From Candidatus Zixiibacteriota bacterium (lineage in GTDB: Bacteria > Zixibacteria > MSB-5A5 > GN15 > FEB-12), in the NCBI GenBank assembly GCA_034439475.1, contig JAWXAN010000078.1, positions 1 to 40,026 of the forward strand: a DNA stretch of 40,026 bases. The letters run 5' to 3'. Under the pieces are notes generated by a model, which was not told where the DNA came from, made no database searches, and saw only the letters and a program-made list of their open reading frames with translations. Of this stretch, positions 5,096 through 14,033 are shown piece by piece. The position numbers and the translations under genes are program-made. The first letter of the stretch is position 1. Every line of letters starts with the position of its first letter.

Positions 5096-6211
5096 TTAAG
5101 TAATGTCATCGTCAAGCTCTATTCCATCTCTATTGAGAAATTCGGTTATTGCTCTCAATGACACTCTTTGTCCCTGAGACCGAGCCGGTTTCCCAAAGTT
5201 AATCTCCCCGAGCACAGTCCTCATTCGGTCGTTTGGCAAAGTTCCATAGTTCATCAGAGTCGTCATCGGTTTAGAATGTCCAAGATTTTGACTGACAGCC
5301 TTGAACTCCTCAGGAGTTTGGCATCGCTCCATAGCCAAATGCACCGCCGCATGCCGGAAAGAATGCGGGTTGAAATAATCAAGACCGGCTTCCTGAGACC
5401 GCTTTTGGAGAATCTCACGTAGTCCACTCCCACTCTTCCAGAACTGGTCGCTTACTCCGACTTGAGCGAATGATAGCACGTTCTCTGCTTGCTCTATAAG
5501 AGTTTTAGGGAAGAGCGGGGCTGTATTTGGAAACAAGCGTTCCGATAAAAGATACCTGTACCAATCCAGTATCGGTAGCAGCATGCGTTCATCAAACACC
5601 ATCAGTTTTGACGGTATAGCCTTGCCGAATTTGGTTTTTACGCCTCGACGCGGGTCCTGGTCAATTCGGAGTGAGTGGGGGTCGAAACAGCCCATGGGAA
5701 GGCTAATAAGAGCACTGAAGCGCATCCCGGAGAGAAGCAGAAAGGCGATAATTGCCCTGTCCCGACGGGCAATCTCCGTATCACCGATTATCGAGTGAAC
5801 TAATTTCAAAACATACTCCAAACTCGGAAAAGGGCGATCCACGGGATTTAGCACTTCTTGGGTTTTACGCAGGTCAAGTGACAGATAAGAGACAGCGTCG
5901 AGCGATATTTTCTTCTTAAAACCCGGCTGTTCGGCAAGCCAAGAAAAGAACCGTTTGAGAATCCGGAGAGTGTGATAAGCTGTGTTTCCACTCAGAGACT
6001 TGGTCTCCCATGCTTGTTTTTCCAAATGCTTCTTGACGTCCATCGCTCGTCTTTGGTTGAAGTATGAGTAGTCCTCGCCTTCAAACAATTGTTCATAATG
6101 CTTCAATGCCCGGATCACCGTGAGCACCGTGCCTGCCGACATTCCTTGCGCGCCCACAAGATGGGTTCGGTACCTGCGTTTCAACTTCTCATTCTCATAG
6201 TTCGGCTTCAT
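5096..6211 (-). CDS. Tyrosine recombinase / phage-type integrase
   Basis: A 371-residue recombinase of the lambda-integrase superfamily. The SAM-like core-binding domain covers about 1-95 and the catalytic domain about 125-340. All key residues are visible: R164 (SGMRFSAL), a lysine-rich beta-hairpin near 192-197, H283 and R286 (HSFRHAAVH), H312 (LGHSK) and the nucleophile Y322 (MNYGTL). AAGGACG lies just upstream of the ATG, and the start overlaps the end of the HTH/zinc gene by 17 bases. A second recombinase of a different chemistry in the same operon as the serine integrase is unusual. It may assist excision or be the remains of a composite module. Confidence 0.92.
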   Translation of the reverse strand: MKPNYENEKLKRRYRTHLVGAQGMSAGTVLTVIRALKHYEQLFEGEDYSYFNQRRAMDVKKHLEKQAWETKSLSGNTAYHTLRILKRFFSWLAEQPGFKKKISLDAVSYLSLDLRKTQEVLNPVDRPFPSLEYVLKLVHSIIGDTEIARRDRAIIAFLLLSGMRFSALISLPMGCFDPHSLRIDQDPRRGVKTKFGKAIPSKLMVFDERMLLPILDWYRYLLSERLFPNTAPLFPKTLIEQAENVLSFAQVGVSDQFWKSGSGLREILQKRSQEAGLDYFNPHSFRHAAVHLAMERCQTPEEFKAVSQNLGHSKPMTTLMNYGTLPNDRMRTVLGEINFGKPARSQGQRVSLRAITEFLNRDGIELDDDIT

Positions 6212-7139: not shown

Positions 7140-8984
7140 TTAGTCTTTTAGCGAATCGGGAAAATTGCGGTCGTAGAGTATTTTGAAGCGGCAGACAAAG
7201 CCGTCGGCGGTTGTCCATGGCAGGAATGGATCGTCGCGCAATCCAGTGAAGGCCCTTAGCCCGTTCCTGAGTCGCTGGAAGTCTTTCTGGTTCCAAGTGC
7301 GTGAGCGTTCTTTGGTGTCCCAATTCAAGCGTCCCTTCCCTTCGGCGAATTCCGTCAGCAAATCCCATAGCCTGTTGGGGAGTTTGGTTTTCATGTTCTC
7401 GAACCCCATTTCAAAGGCGGTATAAATTTCATACTTACCGTTCGAATAGACTTTTGCGGCATCTAATCCCACGATTTCAATTGTGATATCTTCCCACTTT
7501 GTGCCCTCAGGAAGATTCAGACGCTTGCCAGCCGATTCCCTCTTTTTTGTCACAAATGTCCCCGTAATCATGCTAAGCAGTGAGTCTACAGGAACATCGC
7601 CTCCGGCAATTAGACCCTTATGAAGCGATACAAACTTTTCCAGTACTTCGCACACCTGATGACCATGGTGCTTATGGAGCTCATACAGCCGAGTAGCGTT
7701 CTCCGCGGTCTTCCCATCGAGCGATGTTACAATAGTTGAGATGAGACCGCTATGCTCCTCGTAAAAGGCGGTCTCGCTGTTTTGCTGGTAGTCCCGTCCA
7801 GCCTTAATAATCAGTTCCACCATAGCGCGACCGTCTCCTTTTGTGACAGGATCCAACGGCATTTTGATTTTGTACATCTCTTCCGGGTCTTCATCCTCCA
7901 AGCAGTTTTGGATAATAGCCAATCGTCTTCCGATGCATTGAGAGCAGACCCCGCAATGTGTGTTTATCGTATCACCCGACCGAATATGACTACAACTTGC
8001 CGTAAAGCGAATTAAGCTTTGCCCGCCATGAACCTTGATAGCACGGACAACATCCGCCTTTGTGTGCCAAAAGAATGGATTATGGACTCCGAAATTAATC
8101 CCAAACAAAGCCGAATAAAACTTGGATAGTCCTTTCAGAGCTTTCGGATGCGTGGTTCGGCTTGCTCTTGAACCCAGAAGCGAAGGCGCAATCTTTAGAT
8201 TCGAGCTGGTTATCCCATTCTCGTAAAAGCTGATGTCCGACAGTTGGCTCATTCGAGCGACCACCGCCGCCAGCGAAGCATATAGAAACGACCGAGTTCG
8301 CTGGTGGGTATCTTTGGTGATCTTTTCCTGCTTGTTTACCCAGACCGGAATGTGGAGCAGTCGGCTTTCGCTTCCAGTAAGGTCCTGAAAGTCCTTCAAC
8401 AATGTCCGCTGGAGCTTGTCGGTCTGCGGAGCCGAGCGGTGGCTCAACAACACTATCTTGCCTTTTCTCGTTTTGACAGCCTCGCACAGACCCGCGAGCG
8501 AATCCAAGCCGCCCGAAAAAAGCATCACTTCGTCTGGCCGAAACCATGGTTGCCCTTCCTCAAATTCAAAATACTCCTCGAATTTGTGCTCCTTTTTGAT
8601 TGGACGGAAAATAAACGAATAGTAGTCGCCAGAGAGAAACTCCAGAGCTTCAGTCAGAGCATTACTTACAGTTTCAGACTTCCAAACTGTGAGATTCCGC
8701 ACTGGAATGTGGAATCTCAGCTCCCTTTTCCAATTGGCTCCGTCGGCGGGAAGTGTATTTCCTCCCCGTGTGGCCGCCTGATCCCCTGAGTAGACATAGC
8801 CCGCTATCTCAAGCAGGTCTAAAAGCAGGGGAGGAGGATTCTGAACTAATTTACGGCTTATGTTTGAAATTTTTAGATGAACATTGTTTGATCCGGGTAT
8901 CGCATTGAGCAATATAACGTTTTCGCCCAACTTGCTTCTTGGCGGACGATCGGGCCCGCACCAGATATCAATTGGTCCAGCCAT
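7140..8984 (-). CDS. QueC-like (7-cyano-7-deazaguanine synthase-like) defence-associated protein
   Basis: A 614-residue protein built around a QueC-type ATP-pyrophosphatase. The PP-loop is SGGLDS (157-162). The zinc site is C331, C344, C347 and C350 (SCSHIR...THCGVCSQC), matching the four-cysteine arrangement of QueC, which makes preQ0 from CDG with ATP. QueC is only about 230 residues; here a 150-residue N-terminal extension and a 250-residue C-terminal extension are added, as in QatC of the Qat anti-phage system and related defence proteins. No folE, queD, queE or tgt is nearby, so ordinary queuosine synthesis is unlikely. It is the last gene of a tight operon, 4 bases after the MGH gene, whose product is the likely partner or substrate. 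The role in defence is inference from context. Confidence 0.85.
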   Translation of the reverse strand: MAGPIDIWCGPDRPPRSKLGENVILLNAIPGSNNVHLKISNISRKLVQNPPPLLLDLLEIAGYVYSGDQAATRGGNTLPADGANWKRELRFHIPVRNLTVWKSETVSNALTEALEFLSGDYYSFIFRPIKKEHKFEEYFEFEEGQPWFRPDEVMLFSGGLDSLAGLCEAVKTRKGKIVLLSHRSAPQTDKLQRTLLKDFQDLTGSESRLLHIPVWVNKQEKITKDTHQRTRSFLYASLAAVVARMSQLSDISFYENGITSSNLKIAPSLLGSRASRTTHPKALKGLSKFYSALFGINFGVHNPFFWHTKADVVRAIKVHGGQSLIRFTASCSHIRSGDTINTHCGVCSQCIGRRLAIIQNCLEDEDPEEMYKIKMPLDPVTKGDGRAMVELIIKAGRDYQQNSETAFYEEHSGLISTIVTSLDGKTAENATRLYELHKHHGHQVCEVLEKFVSLHKGLIAGGDVPVDSLLSMITGTFVTKKRESAGKRLNLPEGTKWEDITIEIVGLDAAKVYSNGKYEIYTAFEMGFENMKTKLPNRLWDLLTEFAEGKGRLNWDTKERSRTWNQKDFQRLRNGLRAFTGLRDDPFLPWTTADGFVCRFKILYDRNFPDSLKD

Positions 8985-8988
8985 TGGC

Positions 8989-9756
8989 CTATACGCTCCG
9001 CCTGAACTCAGATCGAATCTTCTTGAACGCTATATGGGCAAATTGAGAAACATCCTTGTGTGAAAGTCTGCCTTCCCATCGCGCCTTGCCAAACCAACCC
9101 GGAGTAAACTCATCGGCGATTCGTACCGTTTGCCGAACATGAAGATCAAATGCCCTACTGAAATCAGAGTGTTCCTTAATGTTGGCAAAGGCTTTCCCGT
9201 GGCCGACATGATAGGGAAGCTCCCGTCCGAGGTAATAGTTCAAATAATGTGATGTAAACGATGCGAAAAATTCATGCATTGTATGGCCGAGCATCGAAGA
9301 CTTGAGATTCGCCTGAAGCGCTTGTCTGGCTTGAGCCGGATCAAAGCCAAAGAGAGTCTGTGAGGCTGAGGCCGTCTGATTGACCAGAACCTTGGTGAAG
9401 CTGTCCTGGGCTATTTCGGCGATGTCAGACCGAGCACGGGCCTTGGCTGCGGCTGCAGTGGCCTTCTCTTTGAAGGCATTGACATAATCAAAAAGCGAGG
9501 GACTGGATGGCAGTGAGAAACCTGCAGTGCGAAGCGACGCATCCGGGCTTTTGGATTGGAGAGCGTCGATAAATCCGAAAATAGTGGTCAGAGTCTCAGT
9601 GAATCCGATATCCTGAGGCACACGCCCAAGTCCGGTATATGCCGCCCAGTAAGTTTCGTGCGCGAGTTCTTCTGCTGTTGCTCCATCAGCGAGCAACTCG
9701 ATGACCCTCTTCCACCGGTGAGTGCGAGGTAGTCGGCTGAGTCTTAGGTGTCCCAT
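8989..9756 (-). CDS. Uncharacterised helical protein with N-terminal MGHLRL, partner of the QueC-like enzyme
   Basis: A 255-residue, mostly helical protein I cannot place in a named family. It has no signal peptide or membrane helix. The N-terminus MGHLRLSRLPRTHRW is notable: Met removal would expose Gly, and the same first six residues, at exact DNA identity over 17 bases, begin a truncated gene at 14033. Residues 85-135 are Ala-rich and helical. The C-terminus (about 165-255) carries several His and aromatic residues (HEFFASFTSHYLNYYLG, then YHVGHGKAF). It lies 12 bases after the PLD gene and 4 bases before the QueC-like gene. QueC-like enzymes of Qat and type IV CBASS act with a small partner protein; this protein occupies that position. 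Its function is unknown. Confidence 0.75.
   Translation of the reverse strand: MGHLRLSRLPRTHRWKRVIELLADGATAEELAHETYWAAYTGLGRVPQDIGFTETLTTIFGFIDALQSKSPDASLRTAGFSLPSSPSLFDYVNAFKEKATAAAAKARARSDIAEIAQDSFTKVLVNQTASASQTLFGFDPAQARQALQANLKSSMLGHTMHEFFASFTSHYLNYYLGRELPYHVGHGKAFANIKEHSDFSRAFDLHVRQTVRIADEFTPGWFGKARWEGRLSHKDVSQFAHIAFKKIRSEFRRSV
9740..9756. repeat. 17-bp direct repeat, copy 1 (MGHLRL start)
   Basis: AGTCTTAGGTGTCCCAT is identical to 14017-14033. On the minus strand it is ATGGGACACCTAAGACT, the first codons of the MGH gene. The match stops abruptly on both sides. Confidence 0.9.
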
Positions 9757-9768
9757 AAGTGACCAGCT

Positions 9769-11046
9769 CTATTGCAGTTGACTTACTTTGAATCCGAAGT
9801 AGTGAAGCACTTTCGTGGTTCTGCCATTAACCACGGGTATGTCTTGCCCGTTTATCCACCCAACCAATTCCTGAACACACGAACGCCCAAAATGAGCCAA
9901 TTTCCAATCAGAATTGTAGATCAGATTGCCCATTCTAACGTGTGCAGCGTCTTTTCCGTGAACCAAGTATGCCAAGTTATGACGAAGACGTTTGGCCTCG
10001 TTGTCTTCAAAGAAAACCTTTTGCAAAGTCGGCTCACCACCTTTGTGATATCGGCGTGTTTCAAGAAAGGCATGCACACTGCGTAACGCACTAAACAACT
10101 CAGAGTCCGTACTTTTTAGGATATTATCTTTGGTTTCCATTACCTTCAGAATTTGCGGATAACTGATTGGTATGAGAACATCGTCAAAGTACTTCCAGCC
10201 CTTATCGAGCCACTCTTTAGCTAACGCCGTAATTTGATTAGTTCGCTCACTCTTAGAATTAGCAATCGGATCCCTCCACTTGTCTCCGCCCGCCCGAGCT
10301 TCTCTAATCCAGCTAATGAACCCGTCGATTTCAAGACGTTCCGGCAATGCCTTCTCGTCAACTTTTCGTCTGTCAAGCGAGCGATAGGCATCTCTGATCT
10401 CGAAAATTGCATTGACACATTCTTGGAAGGATTTCCGGTAGCTTTCCTGAAATGCAGACGCTTCATCAATCTTCTTCCGCTCGCGAGTAATATTGCCCGG
10501 CGCTACACTCTTAAACTTCGCTATTACACTTGCATCAAAATCGCCTACCTCTTCGACCGCTTTTCGATACGATTCATACAACTGTCTATATTGCTGCATG
10601 CTTTGCAAATCGAGAACCGCGGCCTGAGTCCAAAAATCATTAAATAGGCTTGCCAGGTCGTCAAATCTCGAATCTGAGGAATCTACGGTGATGAGAATCT
10701 CCTGATTGGTGTTCAGAGCACTACTCGTCAAATTAGCCGAGCCCACCAGCGCAACATCACTCCCAAAAATGTAGAGCTTAGGATGAAAAGAGTGATGCGA
10801 GAAGTACCTTGCCTCGACACCCTCTATTTTCATAAGTTCGCCCAGAGCTTTGGGACTTGTAGGGAATCCCAGCCTTATAATGAGCCTGACCTTACAGCCT
10901 TGATCAACCAAATACTGTATAAAAGAAACATCTGTGAAGAATGCGACTGCGATGAAAACGTCCCGAGGCTCTCGTCCGTATTTTTTCAAACCATTTTCAA
11001 CAAAGTCACTTCGACTATTGGTATTAGTGAATAACTCGGGTTTCAT
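9769..11046 (-). CDS. Phospholipase-D-family (HKD) protein, probable nuclease
   Basis: A 425-residue protein whose first 125 residues form one PLD half-site: FHPKLYIFG with H88 and K90, followed by VGSANLTSSAL (GSANLT at 102-107), the HxK...GSxN signature. A single half-site usually acts as a homodimer. The remaining 300 residues are helical and charged and unknown to me. PLD-type domains in defence loci (for example DISARM DrmC, or N-terminal domains on SNF2 proteins) are usually nucleases. The start overlaps the HEPN gene's stop by four bases (ATGA), so the two are translationally coupled. The MGH gene follows after 12 bases. Confidence 0.82.
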   Translation of the reverse strand: MKPELFTNTNSRSDFVENGLKKYGREPRDVFIAVAFFTDVSFIQYLVDQGCKVRLIIRLGFPTSPKALGELMKIEGVEARYFSHHSFHPKLYIFGSDVALVGSANLTSSALNTNQEILITVDSSDSRFDDLASLFNDFWTQAAVLDLQSMQQYRQLYESYRKAVEEVGDFDASVIAKFKSVAPGNITRERKKIDEASAFQESYRKSFQECVNAIFEIRDAYRSLDRRKVDEKALPERLEIDGFISWIREARAGGDKWRDPIANSKSERTNQITALAKEWLDKGWKYFDDVLIPISYPQILKVMETKDNILKSTDSELFSALRSVHAFLETRRYHKGGEPTLQKVFFEDNEAKRLRHNLAYLVHGKDAAHVRMGNLIYNSDWKLAHFGRSCVQELVGWINGQDIPVVNGRTTKVLHYFGFKVSQLQ

Positions 11047-12491
11047 GTTTCCTCACTCTTATCGGCTGGCCTTCCATTCCACAACCATTCATTCCAATCC
11101 GGTTTCTTATACTGCGAATTCAAATGTAGGATTTTTTTTGCGATTCGACGTCCATACTCTTCAAGACGAGGCATAATGTCAATATCCGTTTTCTTTATCT
11201 CGCTACCGTGTACGATTTTGCTTCTGATTCCATAGGCCCGTTTGAAGAACTCATCGACGCTTTTTCGTTCTTCGGGTGACTCCCCGATTAGCAATGCGGC
11301 TCGAATTCCTAATCTAAAACTTAATCCTTCCCCGCCACCTTCGTTAAGTAATAGAGCCTCGAATCCCATGAAATAGTCTAAAACCCTGTCCTGCCAGTCT
11401 GGGCCGGAACACGCTCGACTGATTCTGCGAAAGCCTATTGTTGAAGCGTGATCCTTCGATTCTTCACTGCCGATTAATTGATTAAAGAGTAATATAATTT
11501 CTTTAGCATCGGTCTTATGTATCCGATATAGAGTGCCACCACGAGCGTACAATCCCTCCGGAGGCGCGGACATCCAGGGGGACTTACCCAGGTCCTTCGT
11601 TTCTTCAATTGTCGCCCCCAACCGGACATTTCCATCCTTCAATAATCTCAAACTATCTACAGCAGCTCTAAAGTGCTCCATCGCCCTCGACATTAAACTC
11701 TCGTGCTTAGGAGCTTGCAACGCTGACATGTTGATCTCGTCTCCACCCAGCCTCGGCAATGTTTCGCGATACTGTAACAGAGTCTGAATCACATACGCTT
11801 CTGGCGGCACCTCACTTATCCCAAACCAATGGTGCAATGGATATTGATAAAGTAAGATGGGGTTATCATTTAGAAAATTCACTAACATTTCAGGAGTCAA
11901 CATCTTTACATGGAAGTTGGGTAGAAGCTCAATTTGCTCCAATTCACAGCTGCAATTTTCAGCGATGGCCGAGATTACGACCTCGACTGAAGTGGTTTTA
12001 AGCGATTCCGTCGATTTGAAAAGGACAGACTCAAAGTGATTTTCGTTGTATGTTAGGTAATGATCGTTGCATGTGAAGTACTGAGCGAGTAGTTCTTTCC
12101 AAAATTGAAAGAATGTGAGTCTGATTGCACTATTGCAGGTTCCGAACATTTTGTCGATATGGGGAGCAAGGAGTTTGTCACATTTAGCGGCTGTCTCCGT
12201 TGCGCGCCTAAGTTTGACCCCTTGTTCATCCATTGTAATGTATTCGTAGGCCCAAGAGACGTCAAAGATACGCTGATCAAATAATTGAAGGCGTTTATCT
12301 TCTCGCAGCCTTACCTTGCTATACGACCCCCAATTCATTTTGCCCGCTTCGTCTACTTTGTTTAGGAACGACAGGGAATTGACAAGCAAATTTCTAAGTA
12401 GGTTGACGAGGTCATGACTCAGATCCAATTCGCTGGATTGATTTGAAATAGATCCGGCTGACTGAGACTTTTTCTTAATTGGCTTTTCCAT
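11043..12491 (-). CDS. HEPN-domain protein (ApeA-like), first gene of the QueC-like cluster
   Basis: A 482-residue protein. The C-terminal 150 residues look like an Apea-like HEPN domain: the region DRVLDYFMGFEALLLNEGG, then SFRLGIRAALLIG, and the RNase motif RSKIVHG (R423, H428; R-X4-H). HEPN proteins of this type are typically metal-independent RNases used in abortive infection. The N-terminal 330 residues are unassigned and may sense a trigger. The ATG at 12491 has no clear Shine-Dalgarno sequence; a 209-base gap separates it from the membrane-protein genes, so a promoter probably lies there. Domain assignment is by motif only; the toxin role is inferred. Confidence 0.75.
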   Translation of the reverse strand: MEKPIKKKSQSAGSISNQSSELDLSHDLVNLLRNLLVNSLSFLNKVDEAGKMNWGSYSKVRLREDKRLQLFDQRIFDVSWAYEYITMDEQGVKLRRATETAAKCDKLLAPHIDKMFGTCNSAIRLTFFQFWKELLAQYFTCNDHYLTYNENHFESVLFKSTESLKTTSVEVVISAIAENCSCELEQIELLPNFHVKMLTPEMLVNFLNDNPILLYQYPLHHWFGISEVPPEAYVIQTLLQYRETLPRLGGDEINMSALQAPKHESLMSRAMEHFRAAVDSLRLLKDGNVRLGATIEETKDLGKSPWMSAPPEGLYARGGTLYRIHKTDAKEIILLFNQLIGSEESKDHASTIGFRRISRACSGPDWQDRVLDYFMGFEALLLNEGGGEGLSFRLGIRAALLIGESPEERKSVDEFFKRAYGIRSKIVHGSEIKKTDIDIMPRLEEYGRRIAKKILHLNSQYKKPDWNEWLWNGRPADKSEET

Positions 12492-12700
12492 TTAAACTAA
12501 TCAATAAGCGCCTAATCGCGTACTAAACCTACGAAATCTAAAGTGTTCGACTCGGGAATGAAACAATATTTTGAAGTCCACGCAAGGCACGGGGCAGTAA
12601 AGGGCCATGAACTCTGGTCAGAGTAGCCATTGTAACACCAGAATTGACACTGGATGCTCCTTTCGAGCATGGAAAGATCCGCCTCGCTCGATTTTGATTG
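12492..12700. other. Gap between the membrane-protein pair and the HEPN cluster
   Basis: A 209-base intergenic stretch. ATGCTC (12654-12659) and GAGCAT (12665-12670) form a small hairpin without a T run, possibly at the 3' end of the membrane-protein transcript. The HEPN promoter is expected near 12500-12560 (minus strand) but no consensus boxes stand out. Confidence 0.35.
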
Positions 12701-13261
12701 TCACCAATCTCTCTCACCCAATGCAGAATCCCTGAGTTTCTTTCCAAAATAGAAAGGCAGCCCCAAGCCGAGGATGATCGCAATCACTCCAATCACCACT
12801 ACCCAGCAGGCGTCGCTATAGAGCGCTGGCGCAGACAGTGTTACAAAGGCGCTGGATCCCAGAAAAGCAAAATAGAATGTTTTAATGATATCGGGAGGCA
12901 ATAGCCACAACCCGTAACGATCCGCGAAGGCCCTTGACGTCCTTGGCCAGGAATCAAGGATGAAACCCGTCATTCCAAGTCGTACTTCAATTTTAGCCAA
13001 CTGCAGGGTAATGTATCTGGAGTTATAACCCAGAGCAAGCGTGTACGCAGTCCCTATTAACAATAAGACAATCACACCCGACGAACCAACCTGAAATACT
13101 TTGGAAGTAACATCCTCCTTGATAAGCCAGATATAGCCGCCAAGTGCAGGGGTCAGTATTGCGACATACTTGATTACTTCCTGTTCACGTTGCCTTAATG
13201 CCGCAAGTAAAACTTGGTGAAATTCCGCCGCTGTCTGTGTTGCTCTTTCCTCAGGCGTCAT
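12701..13261 (-). CDS. Four-helix membrane protein, second of an overlapping pair
   Basis: A 186-residue protein with two pairs of hydrophobic segments. After the N-terminal helix MTPEERATQTAAEFHQVLL, segments fall near residues 30-48 and 58-78, then, after a soluble stretch of about 50 residues, near 128-148 and 152-172. The start codon at 13261 overlaps the stop of the upstream membrane gene (ATGA), which is why I prefer it to a longer reading to 13300. Two adjacent 4TM proteins inside a defence island suggest membrane effectors or an effector/regulator pair, comparable to SLATT or Pycsar TM proteins, but I cannot name a family. Confidence 0.72.
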   Translation of the reverse strand: MTPEERATQTAAEFHQVLLAALRQREQEVIKYVAILTPALGGYIWLIKEDVTSKVFQVGSSGVIVLLLIGTAYTLALGYNSRYITLQLAKIEVRLGMTGFILDSWPRTSRAFADRYGLWLLPPDIIKTFYFAFLGSSAFVTLSAPALYSDACWVVVIGVIAIILGLGLPFYFGKKLRDSALGERDW

Positions 13262-13932
13262 TCGATATTCCCTTCTTTGGCATTCGGTTCCTCGATCCAC
13301 TTTTTCAGGTCATTACGGATATCACGCTTACTCTGCTCGAATGGGTATGCCTGCATATTCTTAGCCACTAAGAATATGCACAGGAAAAGGCCTAATGCAA
13401 TTAGCACTATCACAACAATCTTCTCGGTTACCAACATCTGACTGCAACAGATATAGTGCAGAAAGATCATAACCAACCAACCGATTGCGATTCCCACTGA
13501 AAAAAGGCAAATTCGTAGCAACCACGACGCACGCTTCTTGGCGGTGTGGGACTGATCTGCGGAAGCATATACCTCACTCAGCAACTCGATTTGAAATTCG
13601 GATTTATCAAGAGTAGCAGTTAGCTTTTCCTTGTCAATCCAAGGCACCTGGATAGACCGTGAGGCGAATGTGGCAAACATTGCCAGCGAAGGAAGCACCA
13701 GAAGCAGGAATGGAATCAGGTACGCTAAAGAAAGTGTTGTTAGTTCTGTCTTGAAAAGCTCCAGAAAAGCAACAATAAATAGTGTGTTGATTGCCAGAAA
13801 CAGGGCTAACGTGTTTTCAACCTTCATTCGCCCCGAGACTACAAATTCAAACATTGCCCAGATAGGTTGAGATGCCTGTTCGAGTTGCTTCGATTTTTCC
13901 TCTTTAGAGTCCACGTCTGTAATCCTTATCAC
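13258..13932 (-). CDS. Four-helix membrane protein, first of an overlapping pair
   Basis: A 224-residue protein with a charged cytosolic-like N-terminus, two hydrophobic segments near 40-60 and 68-90 (NTLALFLAINTLFIVAF, then LIPFLLLVLPSLAMF), a linker of about 50 residues, and two more near 143-163 and 170-195, ending in a charged tail. The two-plus-two layout with a helical linker resembles SLATT- and PycTM-like effector domains, though I see no decisive signature. It overlaps the next gene by four bases and lies 5 bases after the truncated MGH reading frame. Confidence 0.72.
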   Translation of the reverse strand: MIRITDVDSKEEKSKQLEQASQPIWAMFEFVVSGRMKVENTLALFLAINTLFIVAFLELFKTELTTLSLAYLIPFLLLVLPSLAMFATFASRSIQVPWIDKEKLTATLDKSEFQIELLSEVYASADQSHTAKKRASWLLRICLFSVGIAIGWLVMIFLHYICCSQMLVTEKIVVIVLIALGLFLCIFLVAKNMQAYPFEQSKRDIRNDLKKWIEEPNAKEGNIE

Positions 13933-13937
13933 TTCAC

Positions 13938-14033
13938 TTATTCAATTCTCGTTTTTTCGCAGTTTACGCCCGCTACTTCCTTCCTCTGGCCCCGAAGGTG
14001 TCGAATAGTAATGCCAAGTCTTAGGTGTCCCAT
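13938..14033 (-). pseudogene. Truncated MGHLRL gene (5' remnant)
   Basis: One base after the nuclease stop codon, an ATG opens 31 codons starting MGHLRLG, then unrelated-looking sequence, to a TAA at 13938. The first 17 bases are identical to the start of the MGH gene at 9756. This looks like the 5' end of a second MGH gene cut by a rearrangement; downstream sequence shows at most faint similarity to the intact gene. Confidence 0.6.
14017..14033. repeat. 17-bp direct repeat, copy 2 (MGHLRL start)
   Basis: Identical to 9740-9756, in the same orientation. Deleting the DNA between the two copies would place the intact MGH gene one base after the nuclease stop codon. Confidence 0.9.

What the first reader, a model, noticed from the sequence alone, without database searches (positions are those of the whole stretch)
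9712..9756. Met-Gly-His N-terminus as a possible substrate for QueC-like conjugation
The unknown partner starts MGHLRL, and a second, truncated gene in the island starts with the same residues. As I recall, QueC-like proteins of type IV CBASS, and QatC with QatB, have recently been linked to attachment of a deazaguanine to the N-terminus of a partner. QatB also has a Met-Gly start in my memory. A conserved MGH start directly upstream of a QueC-like gene fits an N-terminal glycine being modified. This is inference built on a recalled result.
Basis: inference. Interest (0 to 1): 0.72.

Follow-up and report, generated by a model that had tools for sequence, protein, structure and literature searches.

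The report
QatB-like partner with invariant Met-Gly-His start
A pair of neighbouring bacterial genes looks like a stripped-down, previously unnamed branch of the Qat anti-phage system, in which an enzyme related to tRNA-base chemistry probably attaches something to the exposed glycine at the very start of its partner protein.

Summary
In detail: window:8989-9756(-) starts MGHLRL and lies directly upstream of a QueC/QatC-like gene (7140-8984,-). Across 22 relatives (Zixibacteria, Proteobacteria, Armatimonadota, Leptospira, IMG/VR contigs) Gly2 is invariant (all four Gly codons used) and His3 is 21/22. Among pairs under 30% identical, residues 1-15 are the best-conserved 15-residue stretch of 241. 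AlphaFold2 leaves residues 1-8 disordered; the rest matches crystallised QatB (Z 12.1; next 5.7) at 7% identity. The neighbour matches QatC over its whole length (Z 33). Both genes co-occur in exactly 10 of 132 class genomes. So a Qat-type substrate-enzyme pair with N-terminal glycine modification is the best reading. "Deazaguanine" is not supported: the Tyr/Asp that read the base in QueC and Cap9 are absent, and five carrier genomes (one with a broken C gene) lack detectable QueC, QueD and QueE. Differences from qatABCD: MGH not MGTS, a ~10-residue tail instead of 30-90, no QatA or QatD nearby, an extra C-terminal domain on the enzyme (DpnII/MboI-type nuclease in Leptospira, winged-helix-like elsewhere). 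The "second truncated MGH gene" is only a 17-nt direct repeat. No modification was shown. New variant of a known kind.

The parts
8989..9756 (-). Gene B: 255-aa QatB-like partner, start ATG, MGHLRLSRLPRTHRW...
   Evidence: Open frame; no Pfam, NCBIfam or PADLOC family; 22 homologues; AlphaFold2 model pLDDT 82 matches QatB 9y01_A Z 12.1
9712..9756 (-). Conserved N-terminal tail, consensus MGHxRLGxLPxTxRW; Gly2 is the candidate modification site after Met removal
   Evidence: Gly2 22/22, His3 21/22, synonymous codons vary; best-conserved window in distant pairs; residues 1-8 pLDDT under 50
7140..8984 (-). Gene C: 614-aa QatC-like enzyme with C-terminal extension
   Evidence: PADLOC QatC 6e-49; NCBIfam QatC 187.6 bits, under the 280 cut-off; PDB QatC by sequence 3.6e-25; fold Z 33 over 407 residues
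8499..8516 (-). PP-loop SGGLDS (C residues 157-162), ATP pyrophosphate-binding motif
   Evidence: Sequence and alignments A3/A5
8145..8162 (-). SRTTHP (C residues 275-280): S275 and T277 stand where P. aeruginosa QatC has T278 and T280 and where QueC and Cap9 have Tyr and Asp
   Evidence: Alignment to QatC of PDB 9zee; family comparison; residue roles from PMC13279940
7935..7994 (-). Zinc site of four Cys (C331, C344, C347, C350)
   Evidence: Invariant in A3
7143..7517 (-). C-terminal domain beyond QatC (about residues 490-614), winged-helix-like order of strands and helices in the model
   Evidence: Secondary structure of model; no Pfam hit here; homologues: DpnII-MboI nuclease in Leptospira 1.5e-10, Trans_reg_C-like 0.0015, below Pfam's cut-off, in L088
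6195..6788 (-). HTH/zinc protein next to C in 7 of 10 Zixibacteria loci; probably part of the carrying island, not of the pair
5096..6211 (-). Tyrosine recombinase of the island
   Evidence: Pfam Phage_integrase 6.9e-8; found in 6 of 10 loci
14017..14033 (-). 17-nt copy of the start of gene B (second MGHLRL); short repeat, not a gene

Best explanation
B and C are a two-gene, Qat-type defence module. B is the protein substrate: a helical QatB-like body with a ~10-residue tail. After normal removal of Met1 (inferred from the Gly2 rule) the tail exposes Gly2-His3. C is an ATP-using QueC-fold enzyme that binds B, takes the tail into its active site, adenylates a carboxylic acid and joins it to the amine of Gly2. 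The LPxTxRW segment holds the tail at the mouth of the enzyme. The extra C-terminal domain of C (winged-helix-like, or a DpnII/MboI-type nuclease in Leptospira) would supply the DNA-directed function that QatA and QatD supply elsewhere. Shown here: the gene pair, the conserved and predicted-disordered tail, both folds, ATP and zinc motifs, absence of QatA and QatD, variable C-terminal domains. Inferred: binding, modification, its chemistry, and defence. The attached group is probably not, or not only, host-made 7-carboxy-7-deazaguanine (CDG).
For: Gly2 22/22 and His3 21/22 with free codon choice. Tail is the top-ranked window in distant pairs. Disordered tail on an ordered body. QatB is the only clear structural match, Z 12.1 and 12.0 against 5.7 for the next entry, 208 of 215 residues. 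C matches QatC Z 33, 407 of 427 residues, and QueC and Cap9 Z 13. PP-loop, RxRSF and zinc Cys kept. The loop that packs on QatB is kept without gaps. QatC-like hits over 45 bits occur in exactly the 10 of 132 class genomes that carry B. C of this group forms a supported clade, 98/93. Literature: QatB G2D abolishes defence, QatBC alone defends against lambda (PMC13279940); NDG on Gly2 in type IV CBASS (PMC11996544).
Against: No modification or complex was shown. Profile comparison of B with QatB by sequence gives only 6% probability, so homology rests on one predicted fold; the tool warns that helical folds can reach Z near 13 by chance, and Foldseek ranks 9y01_A 14th at E about 1. The tail is much shorter than in QatB (about 10 against 30-90 residues). 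Another group of QatC-like enzymes has partners starting M[ST]DGP, so glycine is not universal. In G070 the C gene is broken after residue 169 while B is intact.
Confidence: 0.68

Rival explanations
1. One reading: C attaches 7-carboxy-7-deazaguanine (CDG) from the queuosine pathway to Gly2 of B, as Cap9 does.
For: QueC fold and Zn site; Gly2 invariant; the Cap9 precedent; four carriers including the window's genome have full QueC, QueD and QueE.
Against: Tyr/Asp base-reading residues absent, as in QatC. G062, G067, G070, G083 and G095 lack detectable QueC, QueD and QueE although 78-97% complete; G083 holds the pair closest to the window's. QueE in carriers is 4/10 against 32/122 in other class genomes, Fisher p 0.46. 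All carriers have tRNA-guanine transglycosylase, so salvage of some deazaguanine is possible.
Confidence: 0.2
2. The tail is only a docking or inhibitory peptide: it plugs the active site of C and is released, rather than modified, on infection.
For: Conservation extends to L6, G7, P10 and W15, not just Gly2; QatC activity could not be reconstituted in vitro (PMC13279940).
Against: PP-loop and zinc residues are kept, which points to a catalytic role; Met-Gly recurs in three separately defined partner families (MGTS, MGGS, MGH).
Confidence: 0.15
3. B's N-terminal Gly-His serves metal binding or another role unrelated to C.
For: His3 is nearly as invariant as Gly2 and becomes residue 2 of the mature protein.
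Against: One otherwise intact homologue has Asn (L015); perfect genomic linkage to C; no further obvious metal ligands in the tail.
Confidence: 0.07
4. The start is conserved as DNA or RNA (translation signal), not as protein.
For: The 17-nt repeat in the window covers just this stretch.
Against: All Gly codons, both His codons and several Arg and Leu codons are used among relatives.
Confidence: 0.01

Closest known systems
qatABCD anti-phage system (QatB/QatC; PDB 9y01, 9zee, 9vlk; NCBIfam NF041925; PMC13279940)
   Same: Adjacent partner and QueC-fold enzyme; both folds; Met-Gly start followed by Pro and Trp; SGGxDS, RxRSF, [ST]RxxHP and zinc Cys; loop that packs on QatB; QatBC alone is reported sufficient against lambda
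   Different: MGH instead of MGTS; ~10-residue tail instead of 30-90; QatB sequence profile not recognisable; no qatA or qatD; Pa QatC T278/T280 become S275 and T/S/A277; additional C-terminal domain (C ~615 aa against ~440); QatC model score 187.6 under cut-off 280
Type IV CBASS Cap9 with its CD-NTase substrate (PDB 9nto; PMC11996544)
   Same: QueC-fold enzyme next to a Met-Gly partner; proposed N-terminal glycine chemistry
   Different: Partner is QatB-like, not a nucleotidyltransferase; no Cap10-like transglycosylase near the pair; Tyr/Asp base-binding residues absent; enzyme three times longer
QueC (PF06508, preQ0 synthase; PDB 3bl5)
   Same: Core fold, PP-loop, zinc site
   Different: Base-reading Tyr/Asp of the YPDC signature absent; groups with QatC, not QueC; the genome has a separate true queC on contig C45 next to queE and queD
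Plasmid operons with M[ST]DGP partner, QatC-like enzyme and HTH/M78-peptidase gene (Rhizobium rhizogenes L081, Methylocystis L083, Sphingobium L082)
   Same: Small partner with conserved start and an LP...W/Y segment upstream of a QatC-like gene
   Different: Ser or Thr, not Gly, after Met; SDGLDS loop; EDYRNHP-type pocket; peptidase-type regulator downstream

Membership tests
qatABCD | QatC: QueC core with N- and C-terminal extensions, SGGxDS, zinc Cys | tested here: met
   Z 33.1, 407 of 427 residues, 24% identity; motifs
qatABCD | QatC above the NCBIfam equivalog cut-off (280 bits) | tested here: not met
   187.6 bits; none of the class's 132 genomes exceeds it
qatABCD | QatB fold in the partner | tested here: met
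   VIA-align Z 12.1 to 9y01_A, next entry 5.7; caution: helical fold, predicted model, Foldseek E about 1
qatABCD | QatB recognisable by sequence | tested here: inconclusive
   hhalign probability 6%; one homologue shows a weak local match to QatB, 20.8 bits
qatABCD | N-terminal MGTS motif | tested here: not met
   MG kept, MGH in 21 of 22, MGN in 1; QatB rows MGTS or MGTT
qatABCD | Long (30-90 aa) disordered N-terminal tail | tested here: not met
   Model ordered from about residue 10; B 10-255 aligns to QatB 64-287
qatABCD | QatA KAP-type ATPase in the operon | tested here: not met
   phmmer with three QatA proteins finds no credible homologue in the window or 14 family loci; one 15.6-bit hit to a 76-aa frame only
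qatABCD | QatD TatD nuclease in the operon | tested here: not met
   No hit with three QatD proteins in the window and 14 loci
qatABCD | Anti-phage activity | not testable with these tools
   Needs plaque assays; location beside R-M genes and recombinases fits
Type IV CBASS | CD-NTase partner | tested here: not met
   No Pfam, NCBIfam or PADLOC family for B; QatB-like fold
Type IV CBASS | Cap10, a TGT-family protein next to the pair | tested here: not met
   One TGT per carrier genome (two contig-edge halves in G095), always on another contig than the pair
Type IV CBASS | Tyr/Asp CDG-binding residues of Cap9 | tested here: not met
   S275 and T/S/A277 at these places (mapping through PMC13279940)
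N-terminal glycine modification (mechanism class) | Covalent adduct on Gly2 made by the enzyme | not testable with these tools
   Needs mass spectrometry
QueC (preQ0 synthase) | YPDC-type substrate-reading residues and grouping with QueC | tested here: not met
   C falls with QatC, away from QueC, in the tree; Tyr/Asp places changed; a separate true QueC of 245 bits is on contig C45

The most novel reading that the evidence does not exclude
B and C are a third lineage of N-terminal protein-conjugation systems built on the QueC fold. The enzyme attaches a carboxylate other than CDG to Gly2 of an MGH-type partner, and carries its own DNA-binding or nuclease domain, making a self-contained two-gene immune system.
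Probability: 0.4. Interest if true: 0.82.

Novelty: new variant of a known kind. Interest (0 to 1): 0.62.

Why it matters
What QatC attaches to QatB is an open question (PMC13279940 could not reconstitute the reaction). This group gives three handles. It is a simpler two-gene pair with a tail of ~10 residues. It occurs in genomes without a detectable CDG pathway, which argues against host-made CDG as the universal substrate. Its natural fusions, including a DpnII/MboI-type nuclease, suggest which output a QatBC-type pair controls. It also shows that a Met-Gly (or Met-Ser/Thr) start beside a QueC-like gene can reveal such pairs where sequence searches for QatB fail.

Tried and rejected
Second MGH gene as independent evidence: rejected, only a 17-nt repeat, and no inverted repeats at the ends of the intervening block. 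DNA-level conservation of the start: rejected by the codon table. PLD-like, 482-aa, membrane and DUF559/Vsr-like genes upstream as parts of the system: no homologue near any other pair. B as a known family: no Pfam, NCBIfam or PADLOC family, and no credible PDB sequence hit. Single-sequence search of IMG/VR found nothing; the alignment search found 8. No complex prediction was available, so whether a ~10-residue tail reaches the C active site is untested. The full text of the NDG paper in Science was not held; only the preprint abstract was read. The C-terminal domain of C was not folded alone, so the winged-helix reading rests on secondary structure and weak profile hits. VIA-align and Foldseek lists for C are filled by its PP-loop domain and say nothing of residues beyond about 475.

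Full report
What was checked. These 45 nt are codons 1-15 of an open 255-aa gene, here B, reading MGHLRLSRLPRTHRW. Four nucleotides past its stop begins gene C (7140-8984,-), 614 aa, scored as QueC by Pfam (4e-7) and QatC by PADLOC (6e-49), but under the NCBIfam QatC cut-off (187.6 against 280 bits). B has no family in Pfam, NCBIfam or PADLOC, and no credible hit among PDB sequences. The window belongs to a 2.66-Mb, 98.7% complete genome whose nearest named relatives are Candidatus Zixiibacteriota MAGs.

Is the MGH start conserved? Relatives of B were found in 10 of 132 genomes of the class (window included), in an alphaproteobacterium, an Armatimonadetes, a betaproteobacterial and a Chromatiales MAG, on a Leptospira noguchii plasmid and in eight IMG/VR contigs. 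Of 22 gene starts, the second codon is Gly in all (GGA 9, GGC 5, GGT 4, GGG 4), the third His in 21 (CAT 11, CAC 10) and Asn in one, and residue 6 is Leu in all; the start codon is ATG in 19, and TTG, GTG or CTG in one each. In several relatives a stop codon lies within a few codons upstream, which fixes the start. For the 35 pairs less than 30% identical over residues 16-255, residues 1-15 average 58% identity against 24%, the highest of all 241 windows of 15 residues. In the closer set the N-terminus is one of several well-conserved blocks, not the best. The conservation is at protein level and far beyond chance.

The second MGH. At 14033 (-) an ATG opens MGHLRLG... for 31 codons. It shares exactly 17 nt with the start of B (9740-9756 = 14017-14033); the following 83 nt match none of the 22 starts better than shuffled sequence. 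In relative L022 the same helicase and Eco57I-AlbA genes run straight into B, without the four genes that separate them here. The simplest reading is a short duplication at the borders of a ~4.3-kb block placed in front of B. It is no support for the MGH hypothesis.

What B is. AlphaFold2 with 13 homologues gives an all-helical protein (mean pLDDT 82) in which the only stretch below 50 is residues 1-8: the stretch most conserved between distant relatives is predicted disordered. VIA-align puts QatB first (9y01_A Z 12.1, 9y02_A Z 12.0; 208 of 215 residues, 7% identity) and the next entry at Z 5.7. Foldseek alone is weak (rank 14, E about 1, probability 0.69) and profile-profile comparison gives 6%, so relatedness to QatB rests mainly on the fold and on the neighbour. 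B residue 10 aligns to QatB residue 64: the tail is ~10 residues, not 63.

What C is. The C model matches QatC over 407 of 427 residues at Z 33 and QueC and Cap9 at Z 13. The ATP loop SGGxDS, RxRSF and the zinc cysteines are kept. In P. aeruginosa QatC, T278 and T280 replace the Tyr and Asp that read the deazaguanine in QueC and Cap9 (PMC13279940). The alignment to that protein (PDB 9zee) puts S275 and T277 of C at these places; in relatives the first is Ser or Thr and the second Thr, Ser or Ala. The loop that packs on QatB has the same length. A tree of QatC-like enzymes groups all MGH-type C proteins, Leptospira included (98/93). C carries ~130-180 residues beyond QatC: a DpnII-MboI nuclease domain in Leptospira (Pfam 1.5e-10, over the cut-off), and elsewhere a domain whose order of strands and helices, and a weak Trans_reg_C match (0.0015, under the cut-off), suggest a winged helix.

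Genomic setting. B and C are adjacent wherever the contig allows, and QatC-like hits over 45 bits occur in exactly the ten class genomes that have B. In G070 the C frame breaks after residue 169. No QatA or QatD is found in the window or 14 loci. In seven of ten Zixibacteria loci an HTH protein, and in six a tyrosine recombinase, are found beside the pair; the upstream side varies: Eco57I-type and other methylases, apparent type I restriction genes, a Cas9. The PLD-like and other genes between 9772 and 13932 occur near no other pair.

Does the host make CDG? QueE scores are bimodal in the class: 36 of 132 genomes at 64 bits or more, all others at 32 or less. Among carriers of the pair QueE is present in 4 of 10, against 32 of 122 others (Fisher p 0.46). 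G062, G067, G070, G083 and G095 (78, 89, 97, 93 and 88% complete) lack QueE, QueD and canonical QueC; G040 is unclear (partial QueC at a contig end). G083 holds the pair nearest to the window's (62% in B) with C intact. All ten have a tRNA-guanine transglycosylase, so salvage of another deazaguanine is possible. Missing genes in draft genomes cannot be excluded one by one, but five together make host-made CDG an unlikely universal substrate.

How it probably works. Met1 is removed (established rule for Gly2); Gly2-His3 enters the active site of C with the LPxTxRW segment at its mouth; C adenylates a carboxylic acid and joins it to Gly2. QatB offers the parallel: G2D and loss of residues 16-22 (P16, W18) abolish defence, and QatBC alone defends against lambda (PMC13279940); in type IV CBASS the adduct is known (PMC11996544). 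The C-terminal DNA-binding or nuclease domain would take the place of QatA and QatD. Binding, modification and defence are inferred. A further hint comes from a separate plasmid group whose QatC-like enzyme has an EDYRNHP-type pocket and whose partner starts M[ST]DGP...LP...W/Y: pocket and partner start seem to change together, though with only three groups this cannot be told from shared descent.

Verdict. It is a new variant of the Qat kind, not a member of qatABCD as defined (QatA, QatD, MGTS and the long tail are missing).

Noticed in passing
L081:3219-6363, L083:3279-6401, L082:3292-6407: Plasmid operons (Rhizobium rhizogenes, Methylocystis, Sphingobium): small partner starting M[ST]DGPxxxxP, a divergent QatC-like enzyme with SDGLDS and an EDYRNHP-type pocket, and an HTH protein, in two of them with a confirmed M78 (ImmA/IrrE-like) peptidase domain. 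Possibly another QueC-based system with a Ser/Thr start.
   Followed up: partly
L002:8780-10642: Leptospira noguchii plasmid C protein is a QatC-like enzyme fused to a DpnII-MboI-type restriction endonuclease domain (Pfam PF18742, 1.5e-10).
   Followed up: partly
window:3422-6788 and L017, L019, L021, L022, L024: Conserved HTH, tyrosine recombinase and often serine recombinase cluster directly downstream of the pair in Zixibacteria, with variable restriction or CRISPR cargo upstream: probably an integrating defence island.
   Followed up: partly
window:9740-9756 and 14017-14033: Exact 17-nt direct repeat bordering a ~4.3-kb block of four genes (9772-13932) absent beside the pair in relatives; no inverted ends found. 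Mechanism unexplained.
   Followed up: partly
window:14953-18618: Eco57I-type methylase fused to a Schlafen AlbA_2 domain; related genes stand next to the pair in L022 and L019.
   Followed up: no
window:18769-21918: SNF2/ResIII-type helicase with an N-terminal PLD-like domain.
   Followed up: no
L023:2020-5187: A 1056-aa Cas9 lies upstream of the pair in genome G071.
   Followed up: no
L020:1967-2512: In G070 the C gene is broken after about residue 169 while B stays intact.
   Followed up: no
L085-L092: Eight IMG/VR contigs carry the pair, with a winged-helix-like end on C; L087 is nearly identical to a Pseudorhodoplanes MAG locus (L032), so these may be integrated elements rather than phages.
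   Followed up: partly
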